A stretch of 36,306 bases of DNA from an uncultured Cellvibrio sp. (GTDB lineage: Bacteria; Pseudomonadota; Gammaproteobacteria; Pseudomonadales; Cellvibrionaceae), in assembly GCA_903858205.1 (NCBI GenBank), contig CAIOHY010000097.1, positions 1 through 36,306 of the forward strand, in the 5' to 3' direction. Of the stretch, positions 2,060-23,670 are shown one piece after another. The stretch's first letter is position 1; every line of letters starts with the position of its first letter. Position numbers and translations under genes: made by a program. The notes beneath the pieces were generated by a model that searched no databases, was not told the origin of the DNA, and saw only the letters and a list, made by a program, of their open reading frames with translations.

Positions 2060-3487
2060 ATGGATAATTGGGAATACATGGGGTGGGTACCCTGCCTGAA
2101 TGGACATTTGGACTTCGGGCTGATGAAAGTAGGCATATCCGGACCATTCAGTGTCGGAAAATCCCAGGATCGAGAATACATCTCCGTCAATCAATCGACA
2201 AAAAAAGAACGCGACTCTCACGAGCGAAAAATCTTTCTCCAATCTAAAGTGGACTGGAGAGACTCTGAAACATTTAATCCCGATGATGGACTTTTTAGAG
2301 TTCTGGTTTCCGCCGAGGTGACACCTTCGCTCTCAATGGACAAGCGCGCACTGCGCGGGCACATCGCCATTTACCCTATCGGCGCAGAACCCTCCTCCTA
2401 TGCCGAACGCATGGAGATGAACATTCATCGCCTCAGTCATGAGCTGAGAAATATTGCAACTGAGCGAGATAGAATTAACCTTCGACTTGGGCAACATGAA
2501 AATAACCGTTTCGACGACCTGACAAGCGAAATGAACACCCATGTGTCGGAGCTTGAAAAAATTGTTTCCGGTCAAACCGGAATAGATAAACTGGACACAT
2601 CTTACTTTTTTGCCTCGTTCGAATTCCGCATTGAGGCAAATGGGATAGTCTGGATTAAATCGGTTAAAGATAATATTCGCACAGATATCAGGTATATCAT
2701 CGCCAGGCAGGCGTATTACTTTTTAAAATATGCACTGCATATTCATAAGCATCATCAAACCAAACAGGATGCACTTACCACGATCGTCGCCCTCGGCGCA
2801 GACGAAAATGCAAAATCAGAAGCAGGCTTAAGACTTGTGTGTCAATTAAAGCGAGAGCTTACCTCACTAAATCGCATCAAAAGTAATCGTTCCCATCGCT
2901 ACAAAGATCAATTCTTTTTAAACGACACTTGCGGCATCATTGCATACGGCAAAGCACTCATCCGATCACTCCGAAACAATGAAATTTTTTCGACGGATAT
3001 TGCTGACCGGGAACTAGAGAGATTCGACGACCTGAAATCCTCCTCTGACGCACTCAACTTCAAAATGGACAAAATGCATGGAATCACCGAGCTGGTGTCG
3101 GCGAAATCCAAAGTCCTCGTCGGTTTATGCATGGGGCTATTCTACTTCATACTAGGACGGCAATTCGTCATAAATAATTCAGCCATCGATATTTCCGGGG
3201 CGGTTAATAACATCCCCAAACTACTAACGGCCAGCTCAGTATTTTGTATCGCATTTCTTATCAGCTATTTTATTTTTAAAAAGATTTATGCAAGCAAGCA
3301 CGGGCTAGAAGACCCAGATCGTGCTGAAGCTATATTCAACACACACAAGAACCGATTTTATACACGAATCGCAATACTTTTTTGCGCATGGGCAATTCTG
3401 ATGTATATAAACTACCTATTTGGTGATGCATTACTAAGTAGCCTTTCCGGGGTATTTTCGTGGGTTGGAGACGCATTCAGCGGATAA
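2060..3487 (+). CDS. hypothetical protein, soluble/coiled-coil N-terminal region plus about three C-terminal TM helices
   Basis: 475 aa ORF; hydrophobic segments VLVGLCMGLFYFILG, LLTASSVFCIAFLISYFIF and IAILFCAWAILMYINYLF near the C-terminus; start codon uncertain. Confidence 0.65.
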   Translation: MDNWEYMGWVPCLNGHLDFGLMKVGISGPFSVGKSQDREYISVNQSTKKERDSHERKIFLQSKVDWRDSETFNPDDGLFRVLVSAEVTPSLSMDKRALRGHIAIYPIGAEPSSYAERMEMNIHRLSHELRNIATERDRINLRLGQHENNRFDDLTSEMNTHVSELEKIVSGQTGIDKLDTSYFFASFEFRIEANGIVWIKSVKDNIRTDIRYIIARQAYYFLKYALHIHKHHQTKQDALTTIVALGADENAKSEAGLRLVCQLKRELTSLNRIKSNRSHRYKDQFFLNDTCGIIAYGKALIRSLRNNEIFSTDIADRELERFDDLKSSSDALNFKMDKMHGITELVSAKSKVLVGLCMGLFYFILGRQFVINNSAIDISGAVNNIPKLLTASSVFCIAFLISYFIFKKIYASKHGLEDPDRAEAIFNTHKNRFYTRIAILFCAWAILMYINYLFGDALLSSLSGVFSWVGDAFSG

Positions 3488-3548
3488 TTTTTTAACAGAA
3501 CCTCAGCGCTGAAATATTTAAGTAATTTTGGATATACAAGAATGGAAG

Positions 3549-3569
3549 GCACCAAATCGGTGCTTTTTT
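3549..3569 (+). terminator. intrinsic terminator
   Basis: GCACC-AAATC-GGTGC followed by TTTTTT, about 60 nt downstream of the 475 aa ORF. Confidence 0.75.
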
Positions 3570-3626
3570 ATTGACACTAACTCGCAGGTGTTTCATCCGC
3601 CACTGCAATAGGAATTCTCTGTCAGA

Positions 3627-3752
3627 CTATTTCTCATGCTTATGCGTTTTTAATTCCTTGTGTTTAGGCTTATTTTCTGGTGTTACACGCTGCCTTTTGT
3701 CTTCTTTGCCAGTGGATTTTGCAATTGGCTTGAGGCCAGGTTTAATACTCAT
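3627..3752 (-). CDS. small lysine-rich hypothetical protein (41 aa)
   Basis: My translation: MSIKPGLKPIAKSTGKEDKRQRVTPENKPKHKELKTHKHEK*, with AGAGG upstream of the ATG; too short for the ORF track. Confidence 0.35.
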   Translation of the reverse strand: MSIKPGLKPIAKSTGKEDKRQRVTPENKPKHKELKTHKHEK

Positions 3753-4088
3753 GAGACAAACCTCTTTGTTGACTGAAAAAACGTGGCAGAAATGTTAAAC
3801 ACGCATGTGCACTCCTTTTAAATGGACATTATCCCGACCTCCCCACCAAGCAGTTAACATATAACCACTGGCTGACTATACAGCTGCATCTAAAACACCT
3901 CAAGATTAAATATTAGGCTTTTTCAGTATATAGGGGCCAACAAGCCACTCGAAGCACTACATACAGTGCTTCACATCGACATCAACATTACCAAACCATG
4001 TCACATCCCCCGCCAACTCAAACGGCTCTCAATTTCTACCCTCTTCTTTAACACCTCTAACTGGACATCCTCACGACGGCATTAGATA

Positions 4089-4102
4089 ATGTATGAATAC
4101 AT
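4089..4102. promoter_or_regulatory. candidate operator palindrome upstream of the HTH gene
   Basis: ATGTAT-GA-ATACAT perfect inverted repeat about 20 nt before the HTH start codon. Confidence 0.35.
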
Positions 4103-4122
4103 AAACTGAATCAGGTGTAATC

Positions 4123-4455
4123 ATGTATCGCCCCAAATTGGATATATGCCGTGATCTCAATCTTTGGATGGAAAAGAGCGGAAATTCGCAGGAATTCGTA
4201 GCTAATGAGCTAAATATTAGCCAGCCACACCTATCGAGGTTGCTCAGCCATGAATACGAACCGTACACCAATAGTTTTCTTGATTTATGCATTCATGCAT
4301 CAGTTGATGCTTATGATAGGGATAAATACGACCCCCTAGAGGACGACGAATTGAAGAAAACTATCAGACTATTTGTTGGTAATAGTCCAACTAAGGCGGG
4401 GCTGGTTACCAATTTGGTGAAGGCATTAGGAGATGGACCATGGGTGTCGCATTAA
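4123..4455 (+). CDS. HTH (XRE-like) transcriptional regulator
   Basis: NSQEFVANELNISQPHLSRLLSHEYEP resembles a helix-turn-helix; first gene of an overlapping operon. Confidence 0.6.
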   Translation: MYRPKLDICRDLNLWMEKSGNSQEFVANELNISQPHLSRLLSHEYEPYTNSFLDLCIHASVDAYDRDKYDPLEDDELKKTIRLFVGNSPTKAGLVTNLVKALGDGPWVSH

Positions 4456-5339
4456 GAAAAGGATTTGCTGAGTATTCTCCGATTGTCGATTTGCTGGTGA
4501 AGACTCGCAAAAAGGTCAAGCCGGTAATAATCGGAGGCGATCCTGGCCTCACTCCGATTTTGAGATGGGCGGGAAGCAAAAAGAAATTATTGCCAGTTCT
4601 TCTAGATCAGGCACTTGGGGAGTGCTCGGGCGTTTACCATGAGCCATTCGTAGGTTCTGGCGCTCTTTTTTTACAGATGAAAGCTAAAAAGGCTGTACTC
4701 TCGGATTTAAATCCACATTTGATGCAAGCTTACAAGCAAGTGAAAAACCATCCGGAAGCGGTATGGGAAATGCTTTCAAAGATGCCCTCAAATATTGAGT
4801 TCTACTATTCTTTAAGGCAAGTTAATTGGATCACACTAAACTCAATCGAAAGAGCCGCTAGATTCGTTTATCTCAATAGATTTTGTTTTAATGGCGTATA
4901 CCGCACTAACCTTAACGGGGATTTTAATGTTGCAAGAGGCGACGGTCACTTGGGAATTCCTAGTTGGGATATTTTTAAAGCGTTTGCAAATCGATTAAAG
5001 AAAGCGAGCCTGGTCGAGGCCGATTTTGGTGTTTCCATAGATAAGGCAGTTAAAGGAGATTTCATTTATATTGATCCCCCTTATGTGGATCTTACCAAGC
5101 GAAATCGTGGTGAGTACGGGTTAGGTTCATTTGGAGAAGAGGATATCTCTAGACTGGCACGCGCTGCCAATCAAGCATCGAAGCGAGGCGCAAAAATAAT
5201 GCTTTCCTATCGGCATTCAGATGAGCTCATCAGTTTATTCAAAGGTTGGAATGTTCGTTCCTTTGACGTTCAGCGGACAGTGTCGTGCGATATCGCAAAA
5301 CGACATGCTGCAAAGGAAATATTATTAACTAATTATTAA
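4440..5339 (+). CDS. Dam-family DNA adenine-N6 methyltransferase
   Basis: ILRWAGSKKKLLPVLL, HEPFVGSGALFLQ and DPPY motifs in class-alpha (Dam) order; overlaps the preceding gene by 16 nt. Confidence 0.9.
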   Translation: MGVALRKGFAEYSPIVDLLVKTRKKVKPVIIGGDPGLTPILRWAGSKKKLLPVLLDQALGECSGVYHEPFVGSGALFLQMKAKKAVLSDLNPHLMQAYKQVKNHPEAVWEMLSKMPSNIEFYYSLRQVNWITLNSIERAARFVYLNRFCFNGVYRTNLNGDFNVARGDGHLGIPSWDIFKAFANRLKKASLVEADFGVSIDKAVKGDFIYIDPPYVDLTKRNRGEYGLGSFGEEDISRLARAANQASKRGAKIMLSYRHSDELISLFKGWNVRSFDVQRTVSCDIAKRHAAKEILLTNY

Positions 5340-5354
5340 TATAATCGGGTTCAT

Positions 5355-6569
5355 ATGGATTTTAACTCTAAGATTCGAATTGCAATAATTTCAGACCCCC
5401 ATTTTTACCAACAGGAAAAGGCACAGACTCCACCATCGTGGCTCAATATAAATGAGATGGGAGATCCACAAAATCTTTGGAAACAACTACAGGATTTAAT
5501 CACCAAAGAAAAGCTTTCAGCGGATGTTCTGCTGTCCTTGGGGGATATCACTACCTATGCCAATTCAGATGCCCTAAAAGTTGCCTGGCAATCCCATGTA
5601 TCCCTCGGTGAACAGATGGGCTGCGACATATTGGCCGCCGCAACAGGTAATCACGATGTATGCTCCCGCCCAAAAGAAGGCGCAAAAAGCCCGAGAGAAA
5701 TGGAGCATGCAACGGATCTATTTGAAAATTTGAAGCAACTTGATCCATGTTACCCTCTGCATCTGTACAACAAAGATAATCATAAAAATGCTCATACGCA
5801 CAGAGTGCATTATTTCGGAGCCGATTTTGTCATTTATGACGATGATGAAAGATTTCGATTGGTTGTACTGAATTCTTGTGCTCGACACACTACAGAAGCA
5901 AAGGAACATGAGAGAGGACGCATAGCAGCGTCAACTATATCTTGGCTGGAAAAAGAACTCGAAAAATTTAGCGACGCCCCAAAAAAAATTAACATTGCTA
6001 TGTGTCACCATAGCCCTATTCCATTGGAGGACAATAATTCAGGAACTTATGATGTGATTCACAATGGCGGGATATTGTTGAATAATCTCAATAAATGTGG
6101 CGATTGGGTAGTTTGCCATGGTCACAAACACTTCCCCAAAATTACGCATCAAAATGAATGCTTCATTTTCTCCTCCGCGAGTTTAGCTTCTTGCAGTGTA
6201 ACAGCTGATAATCAATTTTATATTCTAGATATATTTCTACGCGAAGAGGGTGGAATATCGTGTACGGTCAATGCTTGGAATTGGTTTGAAAGAAAGGGAT
6301 GGGAAAAGGCACTTAGCGTTAAAAACGGAATTTGGGATGGTTGTGGGTTTGGAACAAAAAAACACCCAGAAGAAATTGCAAAAGTTATTTCTGAAATTAG
6401 TCAAGAATTTCCTGTCGATTGGCGATTTGTCAGAGATCAAATATCCGATCTCAAATTCATACCTCCCGAAACTTTTAATAAGACCAATAAGGTTTTAAAC
6501 AATAGATACAACTTGAACATAGTTTGCAATGAAAATGGGCCGGTGGAAGTTGCAAGGATAATGAGATGA
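5355..6569 (+). CDS. calcineurin-like metallophosphoesterase
   Basis: DPH (IISDPHF), GD (LLSLGDITT), GNHD (ATGNHDV), H (CHHSP) and GHxH (CHGHKHF) motifs all present. Confidence 0.9.
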   Translation: MDFNSKIRIAIISDPHFYQQEKAQTPPSWLNINEMGDPQNLWKQLQDLITKEKLSADVLLSLGDITTYANSDALKVAWQSHVSLGEQMGCDILAAATGNHDVCSRPKEGAKSPREMEHATDLFENLKQLDPCYPLHLYNKDNHKNAHTHRVHYFGADFVIYDDDERFRLVVLNSCARHTTEAKEHERGRIAASTISWLEKELEKFSDAPKKINIAMCHHSPIPLEDNNSGTYDVIHNGGILLNNLNKCGDWVVCHGHKHFPKITHQNECFIFSSASLASCSVTADNQFYILDIFLREEGGISCTVNAWNWFERKGWEKALSVKNGIWDGCGFGTKKHPEEIAKVISEISQEFPVDWRFVRDQISDLKFIPPETFNKTNKVLNNRYNLNIVCNENGPVEVARIMR

Positions 6570-8407
6570 AACCAATAGCGTTTTTAGAATCATTTAACGC
6601 GAAAACGATGCAGTTAAAGAATATCGTTGATTCGTTTGTTACTTCCGAACACTTTGATGATCTCGCTGGCGTGTGGAATTCTTTATTGATTGGCCCTCGT
6701 GGAAGCGGAAAAACTACGTTATTAAGAATGCTGGAACCAAAAGCACTTAGACTATGGTCCCATCCAGACGCGGAAAATTATAGAAATGCAATCCAATATA
6801 CTGGCATCTATGTTCCCTCAGATGTTGCTTGGGGTGCGATGGTAGATTCACTGGAAGATAATGGAAAGTTAAACCCTGACTGTTACAAATTACTTTCTGA
6901 AGCAGCATTTATTACAAGTGTTTTTCAAGCATGTATAAGTGCACTGGAAGCGCGGCTCACACTCACAGAAGATGCTCCGCATGCTGATTATAAAGTTGTT
7001 ACTTTAACAAAATCCGCCCAAGAAGAAGTCTTAAAAAAAATTACAAGGCTATGGCGGCTAACAGGGGTTAGCTTATCGTTTAGCGGCCTCCGTGAAGCAT
7101 TGAAATTGCGCATGGTCGAAATTAAGGATAAAGCGCGGGAACTTGTCTACATGCCCGGACATAACGTGCAAGATCTCTTTGAAAAAATTCCATATGCCAA
7201 CCTTCCTGTTGAAGAATGCGTAGAAGCAGCTTTAGGGTATTTTGATGAAGCGATTGGCGAAAGAGATAGCAGATGGGCTTTATTATTTGACGAGTTTGAA
7301 ATTGTCCCATTTGATCTTCAGAAAGTGATAATGGCAAAGCTGCGATCAACCAATTCAAAAATAATCTATAAAATAGCACTCGCACCATGCGGCCATCACA
7401 CGCAAATTAACCTAGATAGCTTCAATTCAGACCCTATCAATGATTATAAACCTGTAACGCTTTGGTACAAAGATAAGAATGCCACCTTAAAGTTTTGTTC
7501 AAAATTATTAGCCAGTAAAATATCTAGCGACGACTCCTCATCGAACATTTTAGAACAGGCTCAAAATTTATTTGGCAAGTCGATTTATGCTGATGTGACA
7601 TCCAGTGAAGAAGACGACACACCAAAATCGAATGACTGGAATGGAAAATGGGAAGCCTATTTCATATCGCTAGAAAAAAAGGACAAATCATTTAAGGATT
7701 TTTTAACTAAAAAAGATATTGATGCTAGCAATTTAAATTCAGACCTAAGCATCATTAGGAAAATTGCACCACTTGTTGCTTTTCGAGAAGCGTTTATCGG
7801 TGATACGGGTGTGCCGAAAGCGCCTAAAAATTTCTCAGACTTCTACACCGGATGGGAGGCATTCGCCACCATCAGTGAAGGAAATCCACGCTGGTTTATC
7901 GGCATGTTAAATACGATGCTTTCCGAGACTCGTCACAGAAACTTAAGAACCGTTCCCAAATCTGTTCAGTTTGAAAAGATCAATACTACTACCGATTCGT
8001 ATTGCGCAATGCTGAAGCTATTGGCGAAAGAACATAAACAGGTTGGCTTAATTACTAAAAATCCTGTTTTTACGTTGTTGAAGGATATTGGTGACTATTT
8101 TCATGAAAGAATAATCAAACACGATTTTGCAGAAGAGATGCCATTGAGTTTCGTTGTTGATAAAGGTATTTCTCTGGAGATAGAGAACATATTGAAAATT
8201 GCTTTTAACCATGGCGCTATAGTATGTCTATCCGACAACCGTGATACAAAACAATTTCACTCGCTTACGGACTTGCGCTTTAGATTAGCCTATTTATTGG
8301 CACCGGAACTCAAGTTACCTTTGCGAGGAACCAAGGAAATAGCGCTTTCAACCATTCTTAGAACAAGGGAAGCGAAAAAGGCTCCTCTGCAGGGGTCGCT
8401 AATATGA
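6566..8407 (+). CDS. P-loop ATPase (AAA/STAND-like, family unassigned)
   Basis: Walker A LLIGPRGSGKTTLLRML; Walker B-like RWALLFDEFEI; ATGA overlap with the preceding gene. Confidence 0.8.
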   Translation: MKPIAFLESFNAKTMQLKNIVDSFVTSEHFDDLAGVWNSLLIGPRGSGKTTLLRMLEPKALRLWSHPDAENYRNAIQYTGIYVPSDVAWGAMVDSLEDNGKLNPDCYKLLSEAAFITSVFQACISALEARLTLTEDAPHADYKVVTLTKSAQEEVLKKITRLWRLTGVSLSFSGLREALKLRMVEIKDKARELVYMPGHNVQDLFEKIPYANLPVEECVEAALGYFDEAIGERDSRWALLFDEFEIVPFDLQKVIMAKLRSTNSKIIYKIALAPCGHHTQINLDSFNSDPINDYKPVTLWYKDKNATLKFCSKLLASKISSDDSSSNILEQAQNLFGKSIYADVTSSEEDDTPKSNDWNGKWEAYFISLEKKDKSFKDFLTKKDIDASNLNSDLSIIRKIAPLVAFREAFIGDTGVPKAPKNFSDFYTGWEAFATISEGNPRWFIGMLNTMLSETRHRNLRTVPKSVQFEKINTTTDSYCAMLKLLAKEHKQVGLITKNPVFTLLKDIGDYFHERIIKHDFAEEMPLSFVVDKGISLEIENILKIAFNHGAIVCLSDNRDTKQFHSLTDLRFRLAYLLAPELKLPLRGTKEIALSTILRTREAKKAPLQGSLI

Positions 8408-9387
8408 ATAAATATTCGGTATCAAAAGTAACTAATATAAATTCAGACGATATCTTGGAAGAGTCAGAAAAGTATGATTTTGCGATTGTATGCTTGAGCA
8501 AAGAGTCAAGATCATTGGAATCCAGAAAACTTCTGGAAAAGTCTTCGCCCGATTGCAAAAAAATAGCCTATCTAAGTTCTATAAAGAATTTGGCCCCATC
8601 TGTTCAAGAAGATTACATAAAATCAAATTTTGAAATTTGCAATTCTGTTGAAGAATGCCTAACCATTTTAGATTCAGTTATTAAACTTAAAGAACATAAA
8701 AAAACATTATCTCTATGTATAGATGTATCTTCTATTCATAGACGAAACCTGGCCTCAATCTTAAGTTTTTTGCTGCGGGAATTAAGTGCAAGGCATCATA
8801 TTGAATTGTCCATAATTTACACGTTGGCTGAATACAGCACTCCTCCATCTTTTGATGTGCAACCGAATACAAGAGTAGCACCAGTTCATTCCGAATTCGC
8901 CGGATGGGCTAGTCTTCCAAGCATACCTATTGCCGTTATTGTGGGCCTGGGGTATGAGAAAGATAAGGCACTTGGAGCATTCGAATACATTGAGTCCAAT
9001 GAAAGGATTATATATATACCGAACTCTCCGGAAGCTGAATATAAGGATCAAGTACTTCAACATAACGATATTGTTATCGGTGCAACAGAACCAAGAAATA
9101 TTATTAATTATCAAGTAGATAAACCCGCCTTGATCTTTATGTCCTTGCGCTCATTGATGGAAGGGATAAAAAATGAATTCCGTCCGATCATTTTTCCATT
9201 TGGGCCAAAAATATTTTTCGCAGTATCACTTATCGTAGCAATAGCCAATCCAGAGGTATCCGTCTGGTACGTTAGTGGAGAGGAGGATGAAACCCCTGTT
9301 GATAAGAAAACTTCTGGCAAAGTTTCCACGTTTGGATTGCGTTGCTTACTTGAAAACTCTCTACCAAATGAAGACTCGGGGAAATAA
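8404..9387 (+). CDS. hypothetical protein, last gene of the methylase/phosphoesterase/ATPase operon
   Basis: 327 aa ORF; ATGA overlap with the ATPase gene; alternating hydrophobic strands (FAIVCLS, LSLCIDVSS, IPIAVIVGLG, ALIFMSL) suggest an alpha/beta fold; no family recognised. Confidence 0.7.
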   Translation: MNKYSVSKVTNINSDDILEESEKYDFAIVCLSKESRSLESRKLLEKSSPDCKKIAYLSSIKNLAPSVQEDYIKSNFEICNSVEECLTILDSVIKLKEHKKTLSLCIDVSSIHRRNLASILSFLLRELSARHHIELSIIYTLAEYSTPPSFDVQPNTRVAPVHSEFAGWASLPSIPIAVIVGLGYEKDKALGAFEYIESNERIIYIPNSPEAEYKDQVLQHNDIVIGATEPRNIINYQVDKPALIFMSLRSLMEGIKNEFRPIIFPFGPKIFFAVSLIVAIANPEVSVWYVSGEEDETPVDKKTSGKVSTFGLRCLLENSLPNEDSGK

Positions 9388-10088: not shown

Positions 10089-11354
10089 CTACTCGTCCTG
10101 AAGCGCAACTATGGGATTAACCGCAGCGGCCTTGGCCGCTGGCATCAAGGATGCCAAAATCCCAGACAATACTAATACCAATAAAGCAATCAAGGCCGTA
10201 GTAAAGTCCACTGAGGGATGACGAAACAAGCGTCCATCGCCGCCTCCCATTTCTATAAATTTATTAACACCTTCCAAAATCAATACACCAAAAACCAAAC
10301 CAAAATATCCCGCTATTGCTGTGACAAATACTGATTCTTGTACAACCATGCTGATAATAGATACGGGTGTAGCTCCCAATGCTTTGCGTAAGCCAATTTC
10401 GCGAGTGCGCTCTTTCACAACAATAAGCATGATATTACCAACGCCTATAGAACCAGCTAAAATTGTGCATATAGATACGAACCAACTAAAGGCTTTGATA
10501 CCTGCAAACAAGCCGTTCATCTTGTCGAACTCATTTTGCAAATTAAAGCTACCTAAAACGCCAAAGTCCTTTACATCAAATTTTTTCCGCTCACTCAAAT
10601 ATTGCTTTACCTCAGCTTCTGCCACAGCAGCATGAATATTTTGCTTAGGTATTATGACAAAACTAGCCACCCAATCAACTTGATTAAAGGCATATCTGAG
10701 AGTGTCATTTGGAATATATATTCGCTCAGCCTCCCTACTATTGGGATCCTTAGTGGTGCATTTAAACACTCCTATTACTTGAAAGTTAATCCCCCCCAAA
10801 GTGATATTTTCTCCTATTGGATTTTCATCGCTCGCAAATAGCATTTCACGTACTTTATTGCCGATAATAGCAACCTTGCGCCTTTGATCATCATCAATTT
10901 TGTTAATGTAACGCCCTTCTAGAATTTTCTGCTGATAGATATTTGCCATCCCAGCATGCGTACCCTGAATAGAGAAATTGCCATTTTTACGTTTATAGAC
11001 CGTATAAGCTGGAGCGCCATCCCATATACCTAAACTATTTGCCGCATATATTTTTTCCACGCTCGCTACATTTTTTTTAATAGCTTCTATGTCAGCAACG
11101 GTCAATATTATTTTTCTTCCTATCGGAAGCCCCTTATAAGCAATTTGAGTGGTGCCTTGGGACCATATCCAAACCGAATTGGGGGTTTCTTTAAAGTTTT
11201 CCGTTACGCCATTTTGTAAACCTCTGCACATACCAAGCAAGATGGTGAGCATAAAGATTCCCCAGAAAACACCAAAGGCGGTAAGTCCAGTGCGCAATTT
11301 ATGCTGAGACATAGTTAAAAATATTTCATGCCATTTATCCCTGTCAAATATCAT
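10089..11354 (-). CDS. ABC transporter permease, MacB/FtsX-like
   Basis: QHKLRTGLTAFGVFWGIFMLTILLG N-terminus; GNIMLIVVKERTREIGLRKALGATP and C-terminal FtsX-like helices. Confidence 0.9.
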   Translation of the reverse strand: MIFDRDKWHEIFLTMSQHKLRTGLTAFGVFWGIFMLTILLGMCRGLQNGVTENFKETPNSVWIWSQGTTQIAYKGLPIGRKIILTVADIEAIKKNVASVEKIYAANSLGIWDGAPAYTVYKRKNGNFSIQGTHAGMANIYQQKILEGRYINKIDDDQRRKVAIIGNKVREMLFASDENPIGENITLGGINFQVIGVFKCTTKDPNSREAERIYIPNDTLRYAFNQVDWVASFVIIPKQNIHAAVAEAEVKQYLSERKKFDVKDFGVLGSFNLQNEFDKMNGLFAGIKAFSWFVSICTILAGSIGVGNIMLIVVKERTREIGLRKALGATPVSIISMVVQESVFVTAIAGYFGLVFGVLILEGVNKFIEMGGGDGRLFRHPSVDFTTALIALLVLVLSGILASLMPAAKAAAVNPIVALQDE

Positions 11355-11365
11355 GATTATTTTTC

Positions 11366-12601
11366 CTAGTCTGCACGCATAGCTTCGGTAGGCATAATAC
11401 GCGATGCTCTTAAAGCCGGCATTAAACCCGCCAGCGCACCGGCCATCACCAATAAAATAATGGCGGTTACAGCCACTTGAAAATCAACTTCAGGATTTTG
11501 AAAAAAAGGTAACTCCGCACCTACACTGCGCAAACCAAAAGCAATAACTTCCAATACACCTACACCTAAAATTAAACCGCTATAACCCGCCACCGATGTA
11601 ATTAACACAGATTCCATTAATAATGTAGATACAATATTAAATGGCGTTGCACCTAGCGCTTTACGAACACCAATCTCACGGGTTCGTTCTTTTACCGTGA
11701 TAATCATAATGTTACTAATCCCGACGATACCCGCAGCTAAGGTACCTAAGCCTACAAACCAGATAAGCGAATTTATCGCAATAAATAACCCATTCACCAT
11801 TTTTGCAGGCTCTGCCATATTAAAAGAACGAATTGCACGCTTATCATCAGGTGATACATTGTGGCGCTGCTGAAGCAACCTAATCACATCTGACTCAAGC
11901 TTAAGTCCGTCGCTACCTACTGTAGGTCGTAACCAAATTGCACCAATCTCATTGCTACTGCCAAACATTTTTTGAAAGGTAGTGTGCGGAATATATATTC
12001 GCTCAGAGTCCCGACCCCGATTACCCTTATCGTGAAACACACCCACAACTTTCATTAATACATCATTTACACGCACCAACTCACCAATCGGATTTACGGA
12101 TTTCCCAAAAACTCGTTCAGCTACGACACTTCCAATGATGGTTACCTTGCGTGCGTCACGCTGATCCAAGGGATTCAAGATGCGGCCGAAATTTAACGGA
12201 AGATCTTCTTTGATATTGAAGTAAACATCTGGCACTCCGTGCACCTCAAAGCTGCCGCTCCTTTTTTCGTGAACTATTGCAACTCCAACGCGCTGATTAT
12301 CACCAGCCATAAATCGTATATGAGGGACTTTTTCTTTTAACTCAGCCATGTCAGTATGCGTGAGATCAATATGCCTGCCGATACCTTGGCCCTTATAAGG
12401 AAGAGAAGTTGTCTCGGTGTATACGACAATAAAATCCATTACCTCCGTGCCAAAACTGGCGTAGACACCATCCTGCAACCCCTTACCTGCGCCCAGCAGC
12501 AAAACAAGCATGAGGGTGCCCCAAAACACACCGAAAGCCGTCAACAATGTGCGTAGTTTATTTTGACGTAAGGTGTAGAGAATCTCCTGTAGACCATCCA
12601 T
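11366..12601 (-). CDS. ABC transporter permease, MacB/FtsX-like
   Basis: QNKLRTLLTAFGVFWGTLMLVLLLG; SNIMIITVKERTREIGVRKALGATP; tandem with the downstream paralogous permease. Confidence 0.9.
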   Translation of the reverse strand: MDGLQEILYTLRQNKLRTLLTAFGVFWGTLMLVLLLGAGKGLQDGVYASFGTEVMDFIVVYTETTSLPYKGQGIGRHIDLTHTDMAELKEKVPHIRFMAGDNQRVGVAIVHEKRSGSFEVHGVPDVYFNIKEDLPLNFGRILNPLDQRDARKVTIIGSVVAERVFGKSVNPIGELVRVNDVLMKVVGVFHDKGNRGRDSERIYIPHTTFQKMFGSSNEIGAIWLRPTVGSDGLKLESDVIRLLQQRHNVSPDDKRAIRSFNMAEPAKMVNGLFIAINSLIWFVGLGTLAAGIVGISNIMIITVKERTREIGVRKALGATPFNIVSTLLMESVLITSVAGYSGLILGVGVLEVIAFGLRSVGAELPFFQNPEVDFQVAVTAIILLVMAGALAGLMPALRASRIMPTEAMRAD

Positions 12602-14336: not shown

Positions 14337-15599
14337 TCATGAGCCACTTAAAGCTTTTTCGATAAGATCACATGCTTTTTTCGCAGAACATTCAGACTCA
14401 ATTTTTTTTCTTGCCATCTTAACCTTAATTCTCATATCGTCATTTGATAACACCGTCTGAATGGCATCAACAACCGCTGTCCTATTGAAGTGCTTTTTTT
14501 TGATTGATACACCTAAGCCATGCCTGACAACCCTACTTGCATTGTCAGGTTGATCAAAGCGAATAGGGCATATAATTTGCGGGACTCCAGATTTTATCGA
14601 GCGAGCAACGGAGCCTATGCCTCCATGGTGGACAAGCAATAACCCCTCATGAAGCACCTGCGCCAAGTCGACATAATCCAGAATTAAGATGTTTTGAGCT
14701 AGAGGAACCTCGCGCAGTGTTTGTTTTGCGATATTACTGATAAATACCCCTGGAATATTTAGTGTTTTCAAAGCTTCAAGAGCTACTTCAAAGAAATTTT
14801 TGACGTCGCGAACGCCGGTGCCAGGAATAACAACGACAGGGGAGCCATGTTTTTTTTTATGAGTTAAAAATTCGCTAACTGCAATGCAGTTATTTTGTTT
14901 ATAAAACGGAAATCCAATCTCAATACAACATTCTTCATCACGATACGCCCTTTCCCCAAACCAGTCAGGGTAAGCCCTTAACCTGATTCTGGGCAGACTC
15001 TCCATGTGGGAAAAAGAAGATATTAATGGCAACCCGACGCACTTTCGAAACAAATTAATTTCCTTTTTGGGATATTTAAACCTCTTATGTATCCAGAATA
15101 AAAGTGGAGCAACTATATACTGAGTGAAGCATTTTACTAATTTACCTTTTATTTCTGTTATTGGATAAATGGGATTATTTAAGTTCCACTCTATACAAGG
15201 GGACAGAATTATCCTGACAAATGGTATATTAAATTTTTCACACGCAAAGCTTGCCCCTGAGCACTCACTACTACTTATAATAACCATTGGAGCGCTTTCT
15301 TTAAATTTTTCTTCTACAAAACCATAGGACACTTTGTATGATGGGATGACGCTGGATCTATAAATTTCATTAAGGCTATGCTCTTGTGACAATTCAGCAG
15401 GCGCAATTGATCTGAAGGATATGCCTTCCACCTCGACTAATTTTCGATGATTTTCATTTGTTAAGAAATATACTTCATGTCCCCGTAATTTTGCCTCTAT
15501 TGCAATAGCCAATAGAGGCACTACGTCACCAACACTTCCCATGCTACTAAAAATCCAAATGCTTCGCACAACAGATTCCTCTTCCATTTTTAAGCACAC
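14337..15599 (-). CDS. glycosyltransferase, GT1/MGT-type
   Basis: N-terminal SSMGSVGDVVPLLAIAIEAKLRGHEVYFLT; C-terminal VHHGGIGSVARSIKSGVPQIICPIRFDQPDNA. Confidence 0.88.
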   Translation of the reverse strand: MCLKMEEESVVRSIWIFSSMGSVGDVVPLLAIAIEAKLRGHEVYFLTNENHRKLVEVEGISFRSIAPAELSQEHSLNEIYRSSVIPSYKVSYGFVEEKFKESAPMVIISSSECSGASFACEKFNIPFVRIILSPCIEWNLNNPIYPITEIKGKLVKCFTQYIVAPLLFWIHKRFKYPKKEINLFRKCVGLPLISSFSHMESLPRIRLRAYPDWFGERAYRDEECCIEIGFPFYKQNNCIAVSEFLTHKKKHGSPVVVIPGTGVRDVKNFFEVALEALKTLNIPGVFISNIAKQTLREVPLAQNILILDYVDLAQVLHEGLLLVHHGGIGSVARSIKSGVPQIICPIRFDQPDNASRVVRHGLGVSIKKKHFNRTAVVDAIQTVLSNDDMRIKVKMARKKIESECSAKKACDLIEKALSGS

Positions 15600-15939
15600 A
15601 ATAAAACTTATTCCGTGGGAAAATAAAATTTTTTAAATCTATTTTCAGTACATGACATCGTAGCTAACTCATACAGTTTGTTATATTACGAGCCACTAAT
15701 AAGGAAGCTAACTGAAAGAAAATATCAATCCTTACAATATGAATATATTTCTTGACATTAAATAAATTGATTTTTATTTTCAGACTCCATACTTCCCGAT
15801 TATTTTCTCTTTCTTAAAATTCTATTTATAAAAAACGTGTTGAATTATTTTCAATTAATAAGAAAACCATCTACAAAAAAATATCTAATCAGGCCAATAC
15901 TTATAAAGCACAGGAACATTTTTTACCTGCAATTAATAC

Positions 15940-17628
15940 TTAAAATTCAACAAAAGCAGATTGAGCAGCGACCTTTTTTATTGCCTTAACAGCACCATAT
16001 TCCATTTCGATTATCTTATCTGCAAAACTGAAAAACAAATCGTCGTGAGTTATAACAATAATAATCTTTCCCATCTTCTTTAAAAGATATAAAAATTCCT
16101 GATAAAAAAACACTTTAAATTCAGGATCTTGATCTGCTGCCCACTCATCAAAAATATATATATCTTTATTTGCCAACAAAGCAACAAACAAAGCAACACG
16201 CTTTCTTTCTCCTGTAGAAAGATTAATAGTTGAAAGCTTTCCGGAACTATTAACCGAAATTTTTTTATCCAATTTAAGCAAATGCAAATACTCCTTTATT
16301 TCGGTGTTCATAGATTCGTTATAGCCAGCCAAGTATGGGAAGAGATGAAAGTCCGGAAATATGGCACCTAATTTTCTTCTAAAAGATTCAACATTAGCAT
16401 CAGTGATTGGAAAATCATCAGCCAAGTACGCCCCAGATGATATTCTGTAATGTGTACTTAATACCTTTCCCAGCGTTGACTTTCCTGATCCATTTCCCCC
16501 TGCTATAAAGTTAATCTCACCCCGATTGAAGGTTAAAGAAATATTTCTAAGCGCAAATCTTTCCTTATGATCTTTTAAGTCATGGTATGAATAATTTACA
16601 TTACGCAAACTAATTGAATAAAATTCGCTCAATCCATCATTGTGTTCTATTTTAATCTCAGCTGATAGTCGACCCATTATGTCCTGAATGCGCCGAAAGG
16701 AAACATTTCCACGAAGCAGTACAGGGATAGCATTTAAAATTATGGATACCGGTGACATGACAAACAACAAGGAAATCACTAATCCGGCCTGGCTTTGTGT
16801 ATCAATCTGATTTATGTAAGGAAAACAAAAAAGCATAATCCCTATCGCAAAAAAATTGAGCGATTCACCATAAATATTAGCCGCATATACTATTGAGCTT
16901 CCTTTCAAGTATTCTTTAGAGGCCTTCTCTTCATGATGAGCTAATATATTTTCAATGTGTTCTTTTCTAGCAGAAGCATTGAGCTTGAGCTCCTTTACAC
17001 CCAATATAAGATCCATCGCACCAGAAGATACATCATCGAAATGCAACTGACTCTTTCTGTGAAAACGATCACTTGCCTTGATAAGCATATAATAACTTAT
17101 TAAACCTACACTCATTATTGCTAGCACGAGAATTAGTGCATCAAAATCAATAAATGCCATGTAAAATAATATGCAAACCAAGGTTATAGTAGAGGCAAGA
17201 ATTGTCGGAGTTACTATAGTTCCCGCCACCACATTAATAACGTCTGAAAAAATACATGTGGATAGCGCTGAAGAACCAATAGATTCAACATCCCTAATTT
17301 TTGCGCTGACAATCTGATTGAAAAGCCTCCTGCGCAGATTAACAGATAATTTTTGCGCCAGAAAATTGGTAACGCTACTTGCAGCAAATTTAGAAAGCAT
17401 AGCCACGGAGCAGATTAATATGAAGAGAATTGCTATCTGCTCATTTGAAGCATTTAAAAAAATGTAAATTAAGCCATCTTGAGAAGAGCCGTTATGAGAA
17501 TTTTGTATTTGAAGAGCATGCACCACAACAGGAAAAATAAGTGCATACCCAATTCCAGATACCACACCTAAAAACAAAGCAACATAAAATAATTTACGTC
17601 CCTTAGTTAACAAAAGCGAATACATCAT
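15940..17628 (-). CDS. ABC transporter, fused TM and ATPase, PvdE/SyrD cyclic-peptide/siderophore exporter family
   Basis: Walker A IAGGNGSGKSTLGK; signature NLSTGERKRVALFVALLANKDIYIFDEWAADQDPEFK; THDD; six-TM N-terminal domain. Confidence 0.88.
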   Translation of the reverse strand: MMYSLLLTKGRKLFYVALFLGVVSGIGYALIFPVVVHALQIQNSHNGSSQDGLIYIFLNASNEQIAILFILICSVAMLSKFAASSVTNFLAQKLSVNLRRRLFNQIVSAKIRDVESIGSSALSTCIFSDVINVVAGTIVTPTILASTITLVCILFYMAFIDFDALILVLAIMSVGLISYYMLIKASDRFHRKSQLHFDDVSSGAMDLILGVKELKLNASARKEHIENILAHHEEKASKEYLKGSSIVYAANIYGESLNFFAIGIMLFCFPYINQIDTQSQAGLVISLLFVMSPVSIILNAIPVLLRGNVSFRRIQDIMGRLSAEIKIEHNDGLSEFYSISLRNVNYSYHDLKDHKERFALRNISLTFNRGEINFIAGGNGSGKSTLGKVLSTHYRISSGAYLADDFPITDANVESFRRKLGAIFPDFHLFPYLAGYNESMNTEIKEYLHLLKLDKKISVNSSGKLSTINLSTGERKRVALFVALLANKDIYIFDEWAADQDPEFKVFFYQEFLYLLKKMGKIIIVITHDDLFFSFADKIIEMEYGAVKAIKKVAAQSAFVEF

Positions 17629-18428
17629 GCATTTCCTTTTACAAATAAAAAAACAAAATAGTATTTTTAAAATAATTAGGCCAAATATTTATAAATACGA
17701 CGGAACTCACAAATAAATTCAGCAATTTCAATTTGATATAGGCGTGAAATCTTCACGCAAAATGAATCTAAACCAATTTTTGTATATGGCGTACTGAACA
17801 TTCGAATTAATATTTAAGCGCAATCCATTGAACAACCTACTTTACTTAATGAGTCCATGATCTTGGATTTTCATGCAATACTATTTACAATCGAATAAGC
17901 AACAGCATTTAATTGCAGCTTACATGTAACTCTGACATTTAACATATTGACAACCCTAATAGACACAAGTTAAGGATCAAATGTGCCAACTCCAAAACTG
18001 CCCTCTGCTCTTAGAGGCCGAAGCCCTTTACTGATCCTATGCTGCGTCACTTTACCTTAAAATCTAAAGTCGTTAGCTATCGACCTAGTTCGCTACCTCT
18101 ATGACTGCAAGAAACAGATAACAATCCACATCTTCGCAACCCAACAAACATAGTTAGCCAATATTTTTTCGCTGCTCTCCTAGTACTGCTTTTTTTCGAA
18201 AAACCATCCCCGTAAATCTAAAAATGCACGAGCTAAAATTCTTTCTGATCACGCACAGATTGTACACGCCTCCTGGTTACCGCCCAAAAAAATGAGGCAC
18301 GGGGCTCCAGCAGAAGGATGAGTTACGAAATCCATTTCCTGCATGCTCTACCGAAAAATAAAAGCACAAAACCCAACCACGAAAAGTTAATGCAAAGCAA
18401 AAATGATATGCAGGAGATGCAACCTAAA

Positions 18429-19688
18429 CTACGAATCAAAATCGACTGTTTCGTCAAAAAACTGTTCGCAAATTCCAGCCACTTTTTCGCCCCCCATACT
18501 TTTAAGCAAGTGCAGCTGTAATTGCTGAAGATTTTCAATATTGATCTCGGTAATCGCTTTTTCGATTTTTTCTTCCAACCGCTTTACCGAAAATTTTTGC
18601 TTTTCAAGAATCCCTGCCAACCCAAGTGATTTGAGCCGATAAGCGTTGTCAGGTTGATCGAAAGCTTGGGGAATTATTAATTGAGGAATGCCTGCGCGTA
18701 TAGCCTGAGCCGCAGTACCTATACCGCCATGGTGAACAATAAGAGCTACTCGAGGAAGCAATGCTGAAAAATTCGCAAAGTTGATTATCATCACATCTTC
18801 ATTCGGCAGTGACTCAGGTAAATTTTTTTCGAATTTTGTGATGAATATCCCTCGTCGCCCTGTCCTTTTGAGGGCGGATACAGCTCCTCTGAAGAGGTTT
18901 TCCACATGAGCAATCCCAGTACCGAAAGTGAATACGATAGGCTTGCTTCCTGACTTCAGAAAATCCTCCAGATCATCAGGCAGCAACGCATTCTCATCAT
19001 CCATAAAAAAAATGAAGTCGCCTTGATATACACTTGCCTCAACAACATTGCTCACATCGTCAAACCAAGCAGGAAAAAGTGCAACTGATGGATTGCTAAA
19101 GAAATTCCATTCACGCATTCGCTTAATCGGAGGCAATGAGACTTCACTTCGCAAAATATTAATTTTTGGCACTAGTGGCTGATTGTAGAAGTGGTCACCA
19201 AGATACACCAAAATATTTTTTATCCAAACTGGTAAGCTACTCAAATATGGAAGCGAGTATGGTAACCGTGCAGCTGTGACTAGTTGGGTAGGTGAATATG
19301 CCAAGCACATACACATCAATCCAAATTTTTCTGCCGCAAATCGTGCACCATAAGCATTCCTTGTACAAACCAAGTTTGGTCGCTCTGATTGACGAGAAGC
19401 AATATATTCATATTCCGTCTGAAATGCCTGTCGAATATAACCGTTCTCATCCAATGCTTTTGAATGGCTATTTCTCGCCCAAAAATTCGCTTGCGTGATT
19501 TTTGCAAGATATGATTCACTTGTGCCGATAGATATAAATGACAGCTCTGCACTTAGGATGTCCATTTTAAAATAATCGTAAGACAACACGACAACAGAAT
19601 GTCCTCGCCGTCTTAGTTCTTTAGCAATAACTATCCCCGGCCAAATATCCCCGCCAGTACCAAGCAACGACATTATATAAAGTGCCAT
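18429..19688 (-). CDS. glycosyltransferase, GT1/MGT-type (paralogue of 14337-15599)
   Basis: LLGTGGDIWPGIVIAKELRRRGHSVVVLS; VHHGGIGTAAQAIRAGIPQLIIPQAFDQPDNA. Confidence 0.88.
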   Translation of the reverse strand: MALYIMSLLGTGGDIWPGIVIAKELRRRGHSVVVLSYDYFKMDILSAELSFISIGTSESYLAKITQANFWARNSHSKALDENGYIRQAFQTEYEYIASRQSERPNLVCTRNAYGARFAAEKFGLMCMCLAYSPTQLVTAARLPYSLPYLSSLPVWIKNILVYLGDHFYNQPLVPKINILRSEVSLPPIKRMREWNFFSNPSVALFPAWFDDVSNVVEASVYQGDFIFFMDDENALLPDDLEDFLKSGSKPIVFTFGTGIAHVENLFRGAVSALKRTGRRGIFITKFEKNLPESLPNEDVMIINFANFSALLPRVALIVHHGGIGTAAQAIRAGIPQLIIPQAFDQPDNAYRLKSLGLAGILEKQKFSVKRLEEKIEKAITEINIENLQQLQLHLLKSMGGEKVAGICEQFFDETVDFDS

Positions 19689-19937
19689 TTTTATTCCTTA
19701 ATCTGTAAAGTTAATCAACAAAACTTTTGTGATCAATCTAATCAAAAAAATAATGCCAATTAACATACCGTAAATTAAGCCGTTTAATCCGGCAGAGTCT
19801 CTGAGCGAAAAAAGGGAAAGGTGATTGGAATTTGAATCAAAACTCAATAAGTATGGGCATGATCGGTTGATGTAGAATGTAGAAAGTGCAAAAAAGCCAA
19901 CTATGTATCCACTAGGTCGATTGATAAAAGTAATTAT

Positions 19938-19964
19938 CAAAAATGCTCCTTCATAAGAAGGAGC
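19938..19964 (-). terminator. intrinsic terminator (minus strand)
   Basis: GCTCCTTC-TTAT-GAAGGAGC followed by ATTTTT when read on the minus strand; lies downstream of the 20162-21313 gene. Confidence 0.6.
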
Positions 19965-20161
19965 TCTCTTGCAACGCTGCAGCACCCTCATTTCTTTTCA
20001 CCACCAAAAAAACGGCAAAAAATTTCCCTACTGTGATGACTTAGAGATGAATTCAAATCCGATTACGGACAATGGTCATAGATATTTTGCAACCAGAGCG
20101 ATCCAACTAGGCGCCTACCTCTAGAAAATTCCAACATCGCTCAATAGCGCAACAAAACCGC

Positions 20162-21313
20162 TTATCTCATATTCAAGCGCTCACATGCATCAGTCCAATT
20201 CAGCATCGACTGAGCTGTTTCGTCAGCCCAACGTAGCGCGTCATCGCCAAGAATGCCACCTCCATTAGGCAGGGCATCAACTAGGCCATCAGCGATGGCG
20301 CGATATGCCTGCACGACACTAGTGGCGGCAGGCACCGTTTCAATATAAGTCAACAGATCTTCTAGTAGCGCCATTCCACTAACCTCGCCGGTAAGATCAC
20401 GCAGCAGTGAGTGCGCATTGCGCTCGTGACGCACTAGCGGCAAGCCAAACGCAAAGCGGGCGCCGACCGCGTCAATCACCATGGAGGCGAAATATGCCTG
20501 AAACATATCACCAAAACGGTCGAGAGGCCGCCCCGATGCAAGCCGCCCCATACGCACGTACCACCATGCAGGAACCAATTCGCGTGCTACTGCAATATTT
20601 TGTGTCGACATGGGTGCCCGTGCGTGGTCTGATGCCAACATCACCGCAGGATGCAACATAGCGCGACTGATCGGATCCAGCGCCGCGCGCGTGGCTGCAT
20701 CGACGTCCGGGTGCCCTTCCCATAGCCCGACATGAGCCAAAACAGTAGCTTGCTCTTCTGGGTAGATCGATAGATCAATACTTTGGCCATCTCGCCGCGC
20801 ATGGGGATGGCCGCGGGCGAATACAGAGACCGGCTGATCAGTCCACCCAGAGCGAATGTCGAGCAAAGCGCAGACATTTGGCCATCGCCCGGCACCCCGC
20901 GCAACCGGCAGGCGCCGCATCTTCCCTACCTCACTGTAGCAGCTGATGAATTCATGTGGATCAAGCGGAAAATTGTCATCATCCAAGGAAATAAAAACGT
21001 CTGCACCAGACCTCCATGCTTCCAGCACAGCTAGATTACGACGATTATCCGAATCGAACGGTACAAACTGTGAAGCCAGTCCTGCAGCATCCAAAATATC
21101 AGCCTGCTCATCAAGCCCGAGATAACGTACATCAAAGCCCTCAGCAACCAAGCGTGCGGCACGACTGGCGCATTCCGGTGGAGTTTTGCGGTCACCCGCA
21201 ATCACCAGTGCGAGACGATTCCCACCAGCAGCAAGCAAGGGGCGAAAGCGATCAAGAAAACGCCCATCGTTGATCGTGGTGAGAGTGATAGCCAATTTGG
21301 GTGGGGATTGCAT
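20162..21313 (-). CDS. glycosyltransferase-like protein (STELLO/reversibly-glycosylated-polypeptide-like fold suspected)
   Basis: LAITLTTINDGRFLDRFRPLL...GADVFISLDDDNFP, with a DDDN metal/nucleotide-sugar motif. Confidence 0.55.
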   Translation of the reverse strand: MQSPPKLAITLTTINDGRFLDRFRPLLAAGGNRLALVIAGDRKTPPECASRAARLVAEGFDVRYLGLDEQADILDAAGLASQFVPFDSDNRRNLAVLEAWRSGADVFISLDDDNFPLDPHEFISCYSEVGKMRRLPVARGAGRWPNVCALLDIRSGWTDQPVSVFARGHPHARRDGQSIDLSIYPEEQATVLAHVGLWEGHPDVDAATRAALDPISRAMLHPAVMLASDHARAPMSTQNIAVARELVPAWWYVRMGRLASGRPLDRFGDMFQAYFASMVIDAVGARFAFGLPLVRHERNAHSLLRDLTGEVSGMALLEDLLTYIETVPAATSVVQAYRAIADGLVDALPNGGGILGDDALRWADETAQSMLNWTDACERLNMR

Positions 21314-21578
21314 AATATGATCACTCCGTAAAAACTTGGTTTTATTCCATCTGTATTAAATAGTGCTCTTCGCCCGAGGTCAGCGTAGGGAACTAAGCAT
21401 AAAAACTATAAGAGAAAATGGCTATCACAGCCCACTATTCAGAGTTGGCAAGCACCTCGTCAATTCCAAAGCCTGAAGACTTCCACGTCTTCTCATCGAA
21501 CGTTTCGCTTGCATTCAGCTTACCATTAAGCGTATCGTGTGTGCGAAAGTTATATGGATCATATTTTAAGGAATTAAA

Positions 21579-22508: not shown

Positions 22509-22516
22509 CGTTATTT

Positions 22517-23650: not shown

Positions 23651-23670
23651 AACATTAGAAATCAAGAACC

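What the first reader, a model, noticed from the sequence alone, without database searches (positions are those of the whole stretch)
4123..9387. Candidate undescribed defence/restriction operon: HTH + Dam-type methylase + calcineurin-like phosphoesterase + P-loop ATPase + unassigned protein
Five genes run in one direction. Four junctions are a 16-nt overlap, a 15-nt gap, and two 4-nt ATGA overlaps. A self-modifying methylase paired with a phosphoesterase and an ATPase resembles restriction logic, with the phosphoesterase as putative nuclease and the ATPase as sensor/motor. No HsdR, REase or helicase is present. The arrangement does not match BREX, DISARM, Druantia, Zorya or classic R-M as I know them. 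The 327 aa terminal protein could be the specificity or effector component.
Basis: partly seen in the sequence, partly recalled or inferred. Interest (0 to 1): 0.8.

Follow-up and report, generated by a model that had tools for sequence, protein, structure and literature searches.

The report
Methylation-guarded four-gene bacterial defence operon
Four neighbouring bacterial genes, a DNA-marking enzyme, a phosphate-bond cutter, an ATP-driven switch and a CARF-like protein with a predicted sensing role, travel together across at least eight phyla and look like an unnamed anti-virus system that recognises 'self' by DNA methylation, a mark that the host's own Dam methylase seems able to supply instead.

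Summary
The five genes are real and at the stated coordinates. The core is not a chance neighbourhood: metallophosphoesterase (MPE), ORC/CDC6-like ATPase and CARF6-type protein sit side by side in the same order in every intact relative found (about 76 loci, at least eight phyla), usually behind a Dam-family methylase. The 110-aa HTH gene is local to Cellvibrio.

The ATPase is Pfam PF24389.

The strongest new result concerns the methylase. All 13 complete loci without a methylase in the operon lie in genomes with a strong Dam gene elsewhere. Only 3 of 56 with one do. Four of the 13 came from a later search of Vibrio's order and fitted the prediction. So the methyl mark, probably at or near GATC, seems to be what is needed, and it can come from the host.

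In wider relatives the ATPase-CARF pair is kept while the effector changes (phosphoribosyltransferase, HD hydrolase, kinase).

Best reading: a modification-gated defence system, BREX-like in logic but not a BREX member. Defence itself is inferred, not shown. I found no name for it, but its parts are catalogued and two key papers were unavailable.

The parts
4123..4455 (+). Small HTH (Xre/Cro-like) protein, 110 aa; probable operon regulator; Cellvibrio-specific, not core
   Evidence: HTH_3 E=0.009; only homologue among the loci lies directly before Dam in Cellvibrio sp. OA-2007, L009 7504-7854, E=1e-8
4440..5339 (+). Dam-family (D12) N6-adenine DNA methylase, 299 aa; predicted self-marking component
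   Evidence: TIGR00571 E=1e-57; nearest solved structure DpnM (GATC) E=3.5e-38; EcoDam N120 and R124 equivalents conserved in 60/60 aligned linked Dams, DPPY intact
5355..6569 (+). Calcineurin-like metallophosphoesterase, 404 aa; predicted effector
   Evidence: PF00149 E=8e-9; homologous to anti-phage DS9_1 E=4e-19, below its cut-off; metal ligands invariant in 47 relatives; AlphaFold pLDDT 92.7; fold hits YydB, Rv0805, Lmo2642, SMPDL3A/B, Mre11
6566..8407 (+). ORC/CDC6-like P-loop ATPase, 613 aa; predicted switch or DNA-engaging motor
   Evidence: PF24389 E=5.6e-117 over residues 6-594; Walker A and DE invariant
8404..9387 (+). CARF6-class tandem Rossmann protein, 327 aa, no effector domain; predicted sensor
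   Evidence: PADLOC CARF6--CARF_CARF_CARF E=1.2e-57; AlphaFold pLDDT 92.4; weak Foldseek matches to the SAVED protein Cap5 (prob 0.96) and the CARF protein Csm6 (prob 0.92-0.99)

Best explanation
A horizontally spread, modification-gated anti-MGE (probably anti-phage) system. SHOWN by sequence: a conserved MPE-ATPase-CARF trio, usually behind a Dam-family methylase, and a strict relation in which complete loci without a methylase occur only where the genome has Dam elsewhere. INFERRED: the methylase marks host DNA at (or overlapping) GATC; DNA lacking the mark is detected by the ORC/CDC6-like ATPase, possibly with the CARF-like protein as ligand or nucleic-acid sensor; ATP-driven assembly then switches on the metallophosphoesterase, which cleaves phosphodiester bonds of invading DNA or of a nucleotide pool or signal and so stops the infection. 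Because a distant host Dam can apparently replace the linked enzyme, the system needs the methyl mark, not the methylase as a bound subunit. The HTH probably sets expression timing.
For: Trio always adjacent and co-oriented in intact loci from at least eight phyla, methylase just upstream in 56. Without linked methylase: 9/9 complete loci have strong Dam elsewhere (277-314 bits), versus 3/56 with a linked methylase; a follow-up in Vibrio's order gave 4/4 more (293-319 bits). Combined 13/13 vs 3/56, Fisher p=1.4e-11; at least 6 state changes on the ATPase tree; 5 independent contrasts, none against. Three Alphaproteobacteria lacking Dam carry another D12 methylase in its place. In genus Cellvibrio an above-cut-off Dam occurs only in the two genomes with the operon. 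Linked Dams keep EcoDam N120/R124 (60/60) and P134 (58/60). Mobility: plasmids, type I-F3 CRISPR-transposon cargo (L012, L049). Sister systems keep the ATPase-CARF pair and change effector; five of six also have a methylase of another class adjacent. Related metallophosphatases DS-8/DS-9 need their predicted catalytic residues for phage defence (PMC13092281).
Against: No anti-phage data. The phylogenetically controlled test is not significant (sign test p=0.0625). MTase-less loci cluster in Vibrio/Pseudoalteromonas-type hosts, which nearly all have Dam. The first base-reading residue of Dam (K9) is R in 54/60 linked enzymes and P134 is A in the window, so the site may not be plain GATC. No partner of the CARF-like protein is known: no credible Cas10, and SMODS-family cyclases in only 7/51 hosts, none in the window's genome. 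Whether MPE acts on DNA or nucleotides is open. Flanks hold defence genes only in some loci.
Confidence: 0.6

Rival explanations
1. Restriction in the strict sense: MPE is an Mre11/SbcD-like nuclease moved by the ATPase, and the complex cuts DNA lacking the methyl mark, with the CARF-like protein as structural or specificity subunit.
For: MPE profile and fold match Mre11/SbcD among others; methylase-dependent safety pattern; no separate endonuclease in the operon.
Against: Closest matches are equally cyclic-nucleotide or phospholipid phosphodiesterases (Rv0805, GpdQ, SMPDL3A); in sister systems the effector slot holds PRTase, HD hydrolase or kinase, which are not DNA nucleases.
Confidence: 0.25
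2. The methyl mark acts on expression: GATC methylation represses the operon, and unmethylated or hemimethylated DNA derepresses a toxic trio (a methylation-controlled toxin or addiction module), so host Dam can again substitute.
For: Explains host-Dam substitution; HTH genes lie upstream in several loci; the operon is found on plasmids.
Against: The trio includes a DNA-engaging type ATPase and a CARF-like protein, needless for simple addiction; upstream regulators differ between loci and the window HTH is not conserved beyond Cellvibrio.
Confidence: 0.12
3. A DNA repair or replication-control complex that uses Dam marks (SbcCD- or MutH/SeqA-like), not a defence system.
For: ORC/CDC6 and Mre11-type folds; relation to Dam.
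Against: Patchy and rare (6 of 395 genomes in Vibrio's order; 3 of 97 relatives), spread on plasmids and CRISPR-transposons; gene tree needs several changes of host class; effector exchange in sister systems.
Confidence: 0.08
4. A second-messenger system: the CARF-like protein senses a (cyclic) oligonucleotide and MPE is the off-switch that degrades it; the methylase is a separate neighbour.
For: CARF6 class and weak SAVED/Csm6 fold similarity; MPE relatives degrade cyclic nucleotides (for the relatives; their activity from general knowledge).
Against: No cyclase in the operon; no credible Cas10 and few SMODS cyclases in hosts; methylase linkage is too regular to be incidental.
Confidence: 0.15

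Closest known systems
BREX
   Same: Adenine methylase marking self, an ORC/CDC6-clade ATPase (BrxC) and a phosphoesterase-type enzyme (PglZ in BREX); no classical REase; same logic of modification plus ATP-driven interference (PMC12839542 read; PglZ from general knowledge)
   Different: No PglZ, PglX, BrxA or BrxB match; phosphoesterase is of another superfamily; small Dam instead of large PglX; CARF-like protein added; methylase apparently replaceable by host Dam, unlike the DNA-recognising PglX
DS-8 and DS-9 metallophosphatase systems (DefensePredictor)
   Same: Homologous MPE; DS-8 couples it to a STAND-type NTPase; predicted catalytic residues essential for phage defence (PMC13092281)
   Different: One or two genes, no methylase, no CARF-like protein; window MPE is far below the DS9_1 cut-off (68.7 of 420 bits)
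PADLOC CARF6 families (CARF_CARF_CARF, CARF_STK_AAA)
   Same: The 327-aa protein belongs here (E=1.2e-57); the STK_AAA fusion model matches the kinase-ATPase-CARF sister loci
   Different: Catalogued as single proteins; no PADLOC model was found for the ATPase or for the combination Dam + MPE + ATPase + CARF6
Pfam PF24389 ORC-CDC6-like with PF24390 PRTase-CE and PF24391 HD-CE
   Same: ATPase is a member (E=5.6e-117); PRTase-CE and HD-CE are effectors of sister loci
   Different: Here the effector is a calcineurin-like MPE and the methylase is Dam-type
DpnII-type R-M (DpnM)
   Same: Methylase is closest in structure databases to DpnM
   Different: No DpnII-type endonuclease; three-gene ATPase effector module instead
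MADS (methylation-associated defence)
   Same: Methylase plus ATPase defence logic (general knowledge)
   Different: Only a P-loop-sized match to mad8 (E=8e-4, residues 38-71); gene content differs

Membership tests
BREX | PglZ (alkaline-phosphatase superfamily) gene | tested here: not met
   No PglZ model hit for any operon protein; MPE is PF00149
BREX | Large BrxC/PglY ATPase (1200 aa or more) and PglX methylase | tested here: not met
   613-aa PF24389 ATPase and 299-aa Dam; no BrxC or PglX model hit
Type II R-M | Cognate restriction endonuclease beside the methylase | tested here: not met
   No REase family in the operon in Pfam, PADLOC or NCBIfam
Type II R-M | Methylase protects host from linked effector | not testable with these tools
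   Indirect support only: host-Dam substitution pattern
CARF6 (PADLOC) | Significant match over full length to CARF6 models | tested here: met
   E=1.2e-57, residues 10-307 of model 7-288/297
Type III CRISPR / CBASS signalling | Cas10 or CD-NTase making the CARF ligand | tested here: not met
   SMODS in 7/51 hosts, none in the window genome; palm-domain matches only borderline, at most 36.5 bits and mostly partial, likely GGDEF; other cyclase families not searched
PF24389 ORC-CDC6-like | Match above gathering score over full model | tested here: met
   392 bits vs cut-off 27, model 2-571/571
Dam family (N6A methylase) | TIGR00571 above cut-off, DPPY motif, R124-type GATC residue | tested here: met
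   195.8 bits vs 114.85; N120, R124 and DPPY conserved; K9 to R and P134 to A
Dam family (N6A methylase) | Methylates GATC | not testable with these tools
   Needs methylome data
Anti-phage defence system | Protects cells from phage or plasmid | not testable with these tools
   Needs challenge assays
DS-9 | NCBIfam DS9_1 above cut-off plus HAD partner | tested here: not met
   68.7 bits vs 420, no HAD gene

The most novel reading that the evidence does not exclude
A broad, unnamed class of immune systems built on an ORC/CDC6-like ATPase plus a CARF6-type protein, guarded by DNA methylation of self and fitted with exchangeable effectors (phosphoesterase, PRTase, HD hydrolase, kinase); the self-mark can be outsourced to the host's housekeeping Dam, so the same effector module works with or without its own methylase.
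Probability: 0.4. Interest if true: 0.8.

Novelty: new variant of a known kind. Interest (0 to 1): 0.62.

Why it matters
If true, this joins modification-based self/non-self discrimination with CARF-type proteins, which are so far tied mainly to cyclic-oligonucleotide signalling, and gives CARF6 proteins a setting outside CRISPR. The host-Dam substitution makes a direct test possible: the same trio should be safe in dam+ and harmful (or restricting) in dam- E. coli. It would also mean that housekeeping Dam methylation decides which defence modules a cell can acquire.

Tried and rejected
Specificity-subunit reading of the 327-aa protein: rejected, CARF6 match and tandem Rossmann model. HTH as a core component: rejected, found only in two Cellvibrio. 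Phage origin: scan of 2.9 million viral contigs found no relative of the ATPase. CARF-like protein fed by Cas10 or SMODS cyclases: not supported. Naming from the literature: ten searches gave no description of this operon; Makarova et al. 2020 (NAR, gkaa635) and Burroughs and Aravind 2020 (JB.00365-20) are not held, so prior description cannot be excluded. Promoter/terminator scan: numbers not above shuffles. Acidobacteriota phylum search for more methylase-free cases: no new ones. ATPase versus PDB by sequence: only P-loop-sized hits.
Full report
OBSERVATION. Catalytic motifs of methylase, MPE and ATPase are intact.

CONSERVED UNIT. A plasmid search with the ATPase and one with the last protein hit the same five plasmids, side by side. 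The four regions opened (Cupriavidus, Methylobacterium, Pseudoalteromonas, Sinorhizobium) show the same order, with Dam in front in three of them. A scan of one genome per species gave 72 loci. HMMs built from the five starting sequences show MPE, ATPase and CARF-like genes adjacent, in that order and on one strand, in every intact locus; Dam lies directly upstream in 56. Taxa include Pseudomonadota, Bacteroidota, Actinomycetota, Acidobacteriota, Verrucomicrobiota, Planctomycetota, Gemmatimonadota and SAR324 (tree). 71 of 74 MPE/ATPase and 71 of 74 ATPase/CARF junctions allow a start codon within 20 nt of the previous stop, and -4 overlaps are the commonest. The gene tree needs six changes for Gammaproteobacteria where one would do, three of them forced by well-supported branches, which fits horizontal transfer. 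The HTH has only one homologue, in Cellvibrio sp. OA-2007 at the same place; it is a local regulator rather than part of the core.

METHYLASE TEST. Complete loci with no methylase in the operon or next to it: L008, L012, L017, L028, L037, L049, L052, L060 and L072. Loci cut by contig ends (L006, L007, L011, L035) and those whose host was not searched (L003, L004, L005, L023, L075, L076) were left out. L072 has a Dam gene 3 kb away on the other strand and was counted as not linked. All nine genomes carry a strong Dam gene outside the operon (277-314 bits). Of 56 loci with a linked methylase only three (L013, L064, L068) have another Dam above the NCBI cut-off (counts). Three Alphaproteobacteria with neither (L019, L020, L025) instead carry a different D12 methylase immediately upstream. 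I then searched the order of Vibrio, whose members usually carry Dam (from general knowledge), expecting copies without their own methylase. Four new trio loci appeared (L107-L110); none has a methylase of its own and all four genomes have Dam elsewhere, 293-319 bits. Combined: 13/13 versus 3/56, Fisher p=1.4e-11. On the ATPase tree the state changes at least six times, with five independent contrasts on supported branches, none in the wrong direction; the sign test is p=0.0625, so after phylogenetic control the result is consistent but not significant. Within the genus Cellvibrio an above-cut-off Dam is found only in the two genomes that carry the operon.

WHAT THE METHYLASE READS. The nearest solved relative is DpnM (GATC). 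EcoDam residues N120 and R124 are kept in 60/60 linked enzymes and P134 in 58/60, but K9 is R in 54/60, and the window has A at 134. GATC or a site overlapping it is likely but unproven. That a distant host Dam appears to stand in for the linked enzyme suggests the mark matters, not contact between methylase and trio, unlike BREX PglX.

CARF-LIKE PROTEIN AND MPE. AlphaFold models are confident (pLDDT 92.4 and 92.7). The CARF-like protein is two Rossmann-type halves with no effector domain. Foldseek matches are weak; the coherent ones are the SAVED protein Cap5 and the CARF protein Csm6. Its usual cyclases are absent: no SMODS match in the window genome and only 7 of 51 in the hosts; Cas10-palm matches are borderline and look like GGDEF cross-hits. 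Other cyclase families were not searched. The MPE has all metal ligands invariant and resembles YydB, Rv0805, GpdQ, SMPDL3A/B and Mre11/SbcD, so substrate cannot be read from fold. Its sequence relatives DS-8 and DS-9 are validated anti-phage proteins whose metallophosphatase residues are essential (PMC13092281).

WIDER FAMILY. Six further PF24389 loci in Gammaproteobacteria keep the ATPase-CARF6 pair but differ around it: PRTase-CE with an Eco57I/N6 methylase or a small N6-type methylase (L093, L095); a ParA-like domain fused to the ATPase with an N6 methylase (L096); HD-CE, with no methylase seen in the stretch held (L097); a kinase fused to the ATPase with an N6/N4 methylase (L098, L099). 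This modularity suggests sensor/switch plus exchangeable effector, guarded by methylation, and argues against a purely nucleolytic restriction model.

MOBILITY AND CONTEXT. In Pseudoalteromonas rubra and Vibrio mytili the trio lies next to Cas8/5f and TniQ of type I-F3 CRISPR-associated transposons. Other flanks hold integrases, GmrSD, McrBC, Dnd/Ssp-type or Tn genes in some loci but not all; no control set of flanks was scanned, so no enrichment is claimed. No viral contig carried the ATPase.

CONCLUSION. Known from data: a conserved, mobile, co-transcribable unit with a methylase-or-host-Dam rule. Inferred: defence, methylation-based self-recognition, ATPase-triggered MPE. Most likely logic: BREX-like gating by methylation with a signalling-type effector module. 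It is not BREX, R-M, CBASS or type III CRISPR by the tests run. The novelty claim is limited by two papers that could not be read and by Pfam/PADLOC names showing that the parts had been noticed.

Noticed in passing
L012 (Pseudoalteromonas rubra) 2262-5494; L049 (Vibrio mytili) 4813-8123: The trio sits beside Cas8/5f and TniQ genes of type I-F3 CRISPR-associated Tn7-like transposons, i.e. probably as transposon cargo.
   Followed up: partly
L098 and L099 (unnamed Gammaproteobacteria): ATPase carries an N-terminal protein kinase domain and is followed by a CARF6 protein and preceded by an N6/N4 methylase: a kinase-effector version of the system.
   Followed up: partly
L093, L095, L097: PRTase-CE or HD-CE genes take the place of the metallophosphoesterase before the ATPase-CARF6 pair; the PRTase resembles PADLOC's retron III-A PRTase (E=2e-16).
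   Followed up: partly
L004 4889-6733: A 614-aa protein without any Pfam match occupies the methylase position in the Pseudoalteromonas donghaensis plasmid copy, with an HNH gene upstream.
   Followed up: no
L003 11478-14950: Next to the operon on a Methylobacterium plasmid: a CHAT/TPR-S protein with a second metallophosphoesterase, possibly another defence pair.
   Followed up: no
window 14337-24903: Two glycosyltransferases (EryCIII-like C-terminal), an ABC exporter, an RGP-domain protein, an epimerase, a SPASM radical SAM protein and a DUF3419 protein; looks like a glycoconjugate or small-molecule pathway.
   Followed up: no
window 10089-12601: Two tandem MacB/FtsX-type permease genes on the minus strand next to the operon.
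   Followed up: no
linked Dam proteins, EcoDam position 9: Lysine that reads the first G of GATC in EcoDam is arginine in 54 of 60 operon-linked Dams, a consistent change that may alter the recognised site.
   Followed up: partly
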